DNA of 64,000 nucleotides, from positions 1,550,001 through 1,614,000 of the forward strand of contig NZ_JIBE01000004.1 in the NCBI RefSeq assembly GCF_000620465.1. Reading direction: 5' to 3'. Under the pieces are notes generated by a model that was given only the letters and a program-made list of their open reading frames with translations, searched no databases and was not told where the DNA came from. A program made the position numbers and the translations under genes. Positions 58,367-60,033 of this stretch are shown here, one piece after another (the stretch's first letter is position 1; every line of letters starts with the position of its first letter). This stretch comes from Ralstonia sp. UNC404CL21Col (lineage in GTDB: Bacteria > Pseudomonadota > Gammaproteobacteria > Burkholderiales > Burkholderiaceae).

Positions 58367-59419
58367 ATGCGTTACAACCAGCTGGGCCGGACCGGCCTGT
58401 TCGTATCGGAGCTGTGCCTGGGCACGATGACCTTCGGCGGCAACGACGGCATCTGGCAGCACATTGGTGATTTGCAGCAAGCCGATGCCGAGCGCCTGAT
58501 CGGGCGCGCGCTCGACGCCGGCATCAACTTCATCGACACGGCCGACGTGTACGCCAACGGCGCTGCTGAACAGATGACGGGGCAGGCGCTCAAGAACCTG
58601 AAGGTGTCGCGCGACAGCGTGGTCGTCGCCACCAAGGTGTTCGGCCAGACCGGTGAGAGCGTGAATGCGCGCGGCGCTTCGCGTTTCCACATCATGGATG
58701 GCATCAAGGCGAGCCTGAAGCGGCTGCAGCTCGACCATATCGATCTCTATCAGATCCATGGTTTCGACCCGGCCACGCCCATTGAGGAAACGGTGCGTGC
58801 GCTCGATACGCTCGTGCAGCATGGTCATGTGCGCTATGTGGGCGTATCGAATTGGGCGGCGTGGCAGATCGTCAAGGCGCTGGGGATTGCGGAACGCCTC
58901 GGCTGTGCGCGCTTCGAAAGCCTGCAGGCGTATTACACCGTGGCCGGCCGCGACCTCGAGCGCGAACTCGTGCCGATGCTCAAGAGCGAAGGCCTCGGCC
59001 TGATGGTGTGGAGCCCGCTGGCCGGCGGGCTGCTCAGCGGCAAATACACGCGCGAGCAGCACGGCGAGCAAGACAGCCGCCGCAACAAGTTCGACTTCCC
59101 GCCGGTGGACCGGGCGCGCGCCTACACCTGCGTCGATGCCATGCGCGTCATGGCCACGGCGCGCAGCGTGTCGGTCGCGCAGATTGCGCTCGCCTGGCTG
59201 CTGCATCAACGCGCGGTCACCACCGTGATCGTCGGTGCGAAGAAGATCGAGCAGCTCGACGACAACATTGCCGCCACCAAGGTCGAACTGACGGCAGAAG
59301 AGCTGTCGCAGCTCGACGAACTGAGCAAGCTTCCGCCCGAATACCCGGGTTGGATGCTGGAGCGGCAAGGCGAGTACCGGCGCGGGCAGCTTGCCGGAAC
59401 CCGGCACGCTGCGCGCTAA
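58367..59419 (+). CDS. Aldo/keto reductase
   Basis: The 350-residue (beta/alpha)8 NADPH enzyme has the AKR patterns LGTMTFGGNDG, NFIDTADVYANGAAE and GVSNWAAWQ, and VTTVIVGAKKIEQLDDN near the end. It resembles the YajO/Tas-like branch. TTGGAG lies upstream of ATG 58367. It ends the plus-strand group of the uronate island and may reduce a related aldehyde or keto sugar. Its stop overlaps that of the convergent prfH frame. Confidence 0.9.
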   Translation: MRYNQLGRTGLFVSELCLGTMTFGGNDGIWQHIGDLQQADAERLIGRALDAGINFIDTADVYANGAAEQMTGQALKNLKVSRDSVVVATKVFGQTGESVNARGASRFHIMDGIKASLKRLQLDHIDLYQIHGFDPATPIEETVRALDTLVQHGHVRYVGVSNWAAWQIVKALGIAERLGCARFESLQAYYTVAGRDLERELVPMLKSEGLGLMVWSPLAGGLLSGKYTREQHGEQDSRRNKFDFPPVDRARAYTCVDAMRVMATARSVSVAQIALAWLLHQRAVTTVIVGAKKIEQLDDNIAATKVELTAEELSQLDELSKLPPEYPGWMLERQGEYRRGQLAGTRHAAR

Positions 59420-60033
59420 TCTGCCGGCTCAAAACCTTCGCCTTTGAAAACGCGGCGCGGGTTGCCGCGCTCCACCTGCAGATGGAGCGCGCGCCGCTGC
59501 GCACGCTGTGCCGCATCGGCAGCCGCATCGTGGTCCGCCAGCTTATGAGCGAGCAGCAGCACGGCCAGCCGCTTGTTGGCGTGCTGGCTGCGCTCCGTCT
59601 GCACCTTCACGCTGATGCCTGTGGCGATATGTGTGGCCCGTACGGCCGACTCCGTCTTGTTGACATGCTAGCCGCCCGGTCCCGAAGAACGTGTGGTCTC
59701 GAAGCGGATCTCGCCCGGTAGCGTTTCCGACGGCGCCGCACAGCGCGCCACCCCGGCGAACCAATTCTTGCGAGCGTGTCGCGGTCGATAGGGGCTCGGG
59801 CAGATCCATTGGATCGTGCCTTCCCAGGCTCGCGCCACGGTCTCCTCGGCATCGCCGTCCAGGCTGATCAAGGCAGAACGCAGGGTGCCGGCACGTTCAC
59901 CGTCTTCCTGTTCCAGCAGTTCGAGCTGGACACCTGCGTCTGCGGACTCGCGTTGCAGGCGGTCCAGCGCTTTCGCCACGGCCAGCTCGCATTCGGCCGG
60001 CCCCTGCGCAGAAGAGAGTTGCAATAACACCAT
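59416..60033 (-). pseudogene. prfH: Peptide release factor H gene with amber codon at the GGQ glutamine
   Basis: The frame would encode 205 residues. From ATG 60033 (overlapping the rtcB stop as TGATG) it reads intact through RFETTRSSGPGG, then a TAG at 59670-59668, codon 122, then HVNKTESAVRATH to a TAG at 59416. The expected residue at codon 122 is the Gln of the universal GGQ motif (CAG to TAG, one transition). PrfH is a release factor homologue that frees peptide from ribosomes whose 16S decoding centre has been cut, before RtcB re-ligation. As written the gene makes a 121-residue inactive fragment unless the amber is read through. The rest shows no decay. Confidence 0.8.

What the first reader, a model, noticed from the sequence alone, without database searches (positions are those of the whole stretch)
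59416..60033. Amber stop exactly at the catalytic glutamine of a release factor gene (prfH)
Codon 122 of an otherwise intact 205-codon prfH frame is TAG where the GGQ glutamine must be. Conserved residues continue on both sides in the same frame, so this is a point change rather than general decay. The simplest view is a recent CAG-to-TAG nonsense mutation or a base-call error. A speculative alternative is recoding: tRNA-Gln(CUG) is a known near-cognate misreader of UAG and would restore GGQ. Readthrough should rise when termination is impaired, which is the condition PrfH serves. Release factor genes have precedent for self-regulation at their own stop codons (prfB frameshift).
Basis: partly seen in the sequence, partly recalled or inferred. 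Interest (0 to 1): 0.85.

Follow-up and report, generated by a model that had tools for sequence, protein, structure and literature searches.

The report
Broken ribosome-rescue gene, stop at GGQ
A bacterial gene for a ribosome-rescue release factor carries a stop codon exactly where its catalytic amino acid should be, most likely a recent ordinary loss of a gene that related bacteria also lose, rather than a hidden recoding device.

Summary
On the minus strand, codon 122 of the prfH frame (59670-59668) is TAG, exactly at the glutamine column of the GGQ motif. Both halves match PrfH on their own, and the gene follows an intact RtcB-family ligase (60033-61160).

The stop is private in what was searched. 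Of 80 named relatives, 79 have GGQ and the 80th is broken differently. Of 398 genomes of the family, 32 have prfH over the cut-off and only this one has a stop inside the match; of 369 of the class, 6, again only this one.

In 16 genomes of the genus (Ralstonia), 8 lack a full open prfH, this one included, so loss is ordinary. The frame otherwise looks constrained (dN/dS 0.18 against the nearest relative), so the stop is probably young.

Recoding finds no support. RF1 is intact, the same gene ends in TAG, and among 46 tRNA genes there is one tRNA-Gln (UUG), no tRNA-Gln(CUG) and none with anticodon CUA. I read it as a recent nonsense mutation that removes PrfH; a base-call error is the main rival.

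The parts
59416..60033 (-). prfH frame, 205 codons plus terminal TAG, interrupted at codon 122
59668..59670 (-). in-frame TAG at the GGQ glutamine column
59671..60033 (-). N-terminal piece, 121 residues, TIGR03072 positions 1-120, 181.7 bits (cut-off 166.65)
59416..59667 (-). C-terminal piece, 83 residues and terminal TAG, TIGR03072 positions 122-199, 117.7 bits; Pfam RF-1 63.6 bits
60033..61160 (-). intact RtcB-family RNA ligase (TIGR03073, 597.2 bits), its stop overlapping the prfH start by one base

Best explanation
This is a young pseudogene. A nonsense mutation turned the GGQ glutamine codon of prfH into an amber stop in this lineage of Ralstonia. RF1 should terminate there and leave a 121-residue fragment without the catalytic glutamine and without the C-terminal half, so no peptidyl-tRNA hydrolase is made. 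The RtcB-type ligase upstream is unaffected and may still act alone. Shown: the stop, its position, its absence from the relatives examined, the intact ligase, intact RF1, and that prfH is damaged or missing elsewhere in the genus. Inferred: that the base is real in the organism, that termination is efficient, and that function is lost. Landing on the catalytic codon is a coincidence of modest improbability.
For: 79 of 80 named loci have GGQ and none a stop there; 1 of 32 prfH matches over the cut-off among 398 family genomes has a stop inside, this one; 1 of 6 among 369 class genomes, this one; 5 of 275 loci carry GG-TAG/TAA-H-V-N, all copies of this site. In 16 genus genomes, 8 lack a full open prfH: this one, a frameshift (G005), C-terminal remnants (G007, G008, G014) and no specific match (G002, G009, G012). 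Frame conserved with dN/dS 0.18 against TCR112, so the stop is recent. RF1 intact; TAG ends 11 of 46 long ORFs in the window and prfH itself. PMC1586002 describes prfH pseudogenes in many bacteria, nonsense mutations among them (passages), and PMC4372345 a candidate prfH pseudogene in all lineage I isolates of Salmonella Typhimurium ST313 (passage).
Against: No accumulated decay is seen: besides the stop, one replacement (codon 77) is private where the other eight genus rows agree, which also fits a gene still in use or a base error. The stop lies on the single most telling codon. Reads and further isolates could not be examined.
Confidence: 0.84

Rival explanations
1. The TAG is a base-call or assembly error and prfH is intact in the organism.
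For: The rest of the frame shows no decay, and no relative examined shares the stop.
Against: The assembly is rated 99.99% complete in 11 contigs, the ligase next to it is open, and the damage is a clean in-frame substitution. Reads could not be examined, so this is weak evidence.
Confidence: 0.11
2. Programmed or stress-induced read-through: a near-cognate tRNA-Gln reads the UAG and gives active PrfH when termination is impaired.
For: The frame downstream stays conserved. Glutamine insertion at UAG is reported in E. coli without RF1 (PMC6207430, passages).
Against: The stop recurs in no relative examined. RF1 is intact. No tRNA-Gln(CUG) and no CUA anticodon were found in this genome or in a two-contig relative. 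The gene's own terminal stop is also TAG, here and in six named relatives. No special element was identified; none was searched for by folding.
Confidence: 0.02
3. The 121-residue fragment is itself the selected product, for instance as a regulator or partner of the ligase.
For: The N-terminal piece is conserved (dN/dS 0.13 against TCR112) and follows an intact ligase with overlapping stop and start.
Against: The constraint is explained by the time before the stop. The codon-recognition part of class-I factors is built from domains 2 and 4, on both sides of the GGQ domain (PMC1586002 passage), so half of it is missing. None of the relatives examined has a gene ending here.
Confidence: 0.03

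Closest known systems
PrfH (RFH), TIGR03072, in the RtcB2-PrfH operon
   Same: Both pieces match the family, the order ligase then prfH is the known one, and relatives in the genus carry intact copies
   Different: The GGQ glutamine codon is a stop, so no active factor is expected
prfH pseudogenes (E. coli K-12 and others, PMC1586002; Salmonella Typhimurium ST313 lineage I, PMC4372345; passages)
   Same: A disrupted prfH; nonsense mutations are among the reported kinds
   Different: The stop is exactly on the catalytic codon and the ligase is intact; the K-12 case is a deletion that affects both genes (passage)
prfB programmed frameshift (self-regulated release factor 2 gene; recalled)
   Same: A stop codon inside a release-factor gene
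   Different: The prfB signal is conserved across species (recalled); this stop is private and no decoder was found

Membership tests
PrfH (TIGR03072) | Sequence match over the curated cut-off | tested here: met
   N-terminal piece alone 181.7 bits against 166.65; C-terminal piece alone 117.7, under the whole-protein cut-off
PrfH (TIGR03072) | GGQ catalytic motif encoded | tested here: not met
   TAG at the glutamine column
RtcB2-PrfH operon | RtcB-family ligase directly upstream and intact | tested here: met
   TIGR03073 597.2 bits, one in-frame stop at its end
Ordinary pseudogene | Disruption private while relatives are intact, and loss seen elsewhere in the group | tested here: met
Ordinary pseudogene | Relaxed constraint after the disruption | tested here: inconclusive
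   dN/dS 0.18 overall; too few changes on this branch
Programmed stop read-through | Same stop conserved in relatives | tested here: not met
Programmed stop read-through | A suppressor or the proposed tRNA-Gln(CUG) present | tested here: not met
   46 tRNA genes here, 51 in G015; one tRNA-Gln (UUG) in each; one low-scoring tRNA-like gene in G015 has an unresolved anticodon
Programmed stop read-through | Full-length product seen | not testable with these tools
   no reads, proteomics or profiling data

The most novel reading that the evidence does not exclude
A rescue release factor whose catalytic glutamine is supplied only when UAG is read through, so that the active factor is made just when termination fails. 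Not excluded, because no reads, protein data or further isolates could be examined and because tRNA-Gln(UUG) might misread UAG weakly.
Probability: 0.02. Interest if true: 0.9.

Novelty: new member of a known kind. Interest (0 to 1): 0.12.

Why it matters
As it stands it adds one more broken copy to a gene family already known for pseudogenes, here with the ligase kept while its release-factor partner is lost. PMC9223846 (passages) reports that over-expressed rtcB2 alone protected E. coli from colicin E3 while prfH alone did not, so such half-modules may still serve the cell. If read-through were real it would be a striking self-sensing circuit, but nothing found here points to it.

Tried and rejected
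Recurrence of the stop in relatives: looked for and not found (the pattern covers TAG and TAA, not TGA). Suppressor tRNA or tRNA-Gln(CUG): looked for in this genome and in a two-contig relative and not found. Accumulated decay as the sign of an old pseudogene: not seen; two C-terminal replacements (codons 185 and 200) that first looked like decay are shared with the intact NFACC01 gene. Same operon in plasmid records: no match. E. coli prfH survey: 4714 of 5426 genomes matched, but the query was too distant (no match covered 80% of it), so it says nothing about decay there. Literature: the listings (9 of 9 papers; 2 of 2; 8 of 38; 9 of 9) showed no title or abstract start reporting a stop at the GGQ codon of prfH; of the papers only passages were seen, in PMC1586002, PMC9223846, PMC6207430 and PMC4372345. 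Figure 2A of PMC1586002, which marks nonsense mutations, could not be seen, so an earlier case there is not excluded.

Full report
What is there. On the minus strand, 60033 down to 59416 holds one frame of 205 codons and a terminal TAG, with a single further stop, TAG at codon 122. The two pieces, searched apart, both match peptide chain release factor H: TIGR03072, 181.7 bits over profile 1-120 and 117.7 bits over 122-199. The missing profile position is the glutamine of GGQ. The upstream gene, 60033-61160, is an open RtcB-family ligase (TIGR03073, 597.2 bits) whose stop overlaps the prfH start by one base. So this is an RtcB-PrfH operon with a stop at the catalytic codon.

Whose genome. The nearest named relatives by the ligase are Ralstonia isolates, the closest Ralstonia sp. 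TCR112 (99% of the ligase; 96.4% over 5 kb of DNA). No call names the species itself.

Does the stop recur? Not in what was searched. Of 398 genomes of the same family, 32 have prfH over the cut-off, and only this genome has a stop inside the match. Of 369 genomes of the class, 6 do, and again only this one. A pattern for GG, TAG or TAA, H, V, N over the 275 loci held hits five, all of them copies of this site. These sets overlap and must not be added.

Is loss ordinary here? Yes. In 16 genomes of the genus, eight have an open full-length frame (one of them, G011, with a three-residue insertion). This one has the stop. G005 has a frameshift near codon 42. G007 and G008 keep a C-terminal remnant with what looks like the same junction. 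G014 keeps a rearranged remnant in which the GGQ column reads proline. G002, G009 and G012 show no specific match; some of these are drafts. The specific ligase is found in 10 of 16: the eight, this genome and G005. In print, PMC1586002 (passages) found intact or disrupted prfH in 23 of 311 genomes and describes deletions, frameshifts and nonsense mutations; PMC4372345 (one passage) lists prfH as a candidate pseudogene in all lineage I isolates of Salmonella Typhimurium ST313.

How old is the stop? Against TCR112 the frame without codon 122 has dN 0.033 and dS 0.182, ratio 0.18; two pairs of intact relatives gave 0.16 and 0.20. By pieces the ratio is 0.13 for the N-terminal and 0.33 for the C-terminal piece; the higher C-terminal value is not peculiar to this gene, since the intact pair TCR112 and NFACC01 also gives 0.33 there. 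Besides the stop, one replacement (codon 77) is private where the other eight genus rows agree. So most of the divergence passed under constraint and the stop is probably recent. This cannot tell a young null from a gene still in use or from a base error.

Can it be recoded? The needed parts were not found. RF1 is present and open (541.6 bits). In the window 11 of 46 long ORFs, picked by length and codon composition, end in TAG, and so does prfH itself, here and in the six named Ralstonia relatives checked. Among 46 tRNA genes there is one tRNA-Gln with anticodon UUG, none with CUG, and none with CUA. A relative in two contigs has 51; its extra five (tyrosine, glycine UCC, threonine GGU, a second isoleucine and a second alanine UGC) fit stretches missing from this draft, and it too has one tRNA-Gln, UUG. 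One low-scoring tRNA-like gene there has an unresolved anticodon (L275); its counterpart here reads as tRNA-Asn (L226). Glutamine insertion at UAG is reported in E. coli without RF1 (PMC6207430, passages), which is not the situation here.

How surprising is the position? In the intact TCR112 gene 55 of 204 codons are one change from a stop, 17 by a transition; in NFACC01 46 and 15. Given one nonsense mutation, this codon is hit very roughly once in 15 to 55 times. That is notable but needs no mechanism, above all since a scan looks at many genes.

What it does. The best account is loss of function: at most a 121-residue fragment without the catalytic glutamine is made. The ligase remains; PMC9223846 (passages) reports that over-expressed rtcB2 alone protected E. 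coli against colicin E3, whereas prfH alone did not. Whether that holds in this organism is inference.

Mosaic neighbourhood. From about 59600 to 59101 this sequence has 2 mismatches to NFACC01 and 23 to TCR112, while in the neighbouring hundreds of bases NFACC01 is farther than TCR112. A recombination tract therefore seems to begin some 70 bases beyond the stop in the direction of the gene. It does not explain the stop, which NFACC01 lacks.

Verdict. Observation confirmed; recoding not supported; a recent private nonsense mutation is most likely, with a base-call error as the main rival. Interest is low.

Noticed in passing
window 59101-59600: A stretch almost identical to Ralstonia sp. NFACC01 (2 mismatches) but not to the otherwise nearest TCR112 (23), as from recombination, covering the prfH 3' end and the end of the neighbouring aldo/keto reductase-like gene (name by eye).
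   Followed up: partly
L031 1501-1671 (G014:C66:34028-34198): A rearranged prfH remnant in another genus member reads GGP where GGQ is expected, and the specific ligase was not found there.
   Followed up: partly
phage record OR850930.1 3161-4648 (query window 59416-61160): A 4801-base record filed as a Salmonella phage matches the rtcB-prfH operon at 65% DNA identity; it may be bacterial DNA filed as phage.
   Followed up: no
L226 (G000:C4:1492188-1492461) and L275 (G015:C1:1591119-1591392): A low-scoring tRNA-like gene in both genomes, on the contig that also carries the rtcB-prfH operon; read as tRNA-Asn here and with an unresolved anticodon in the relative.
   Followed up: no
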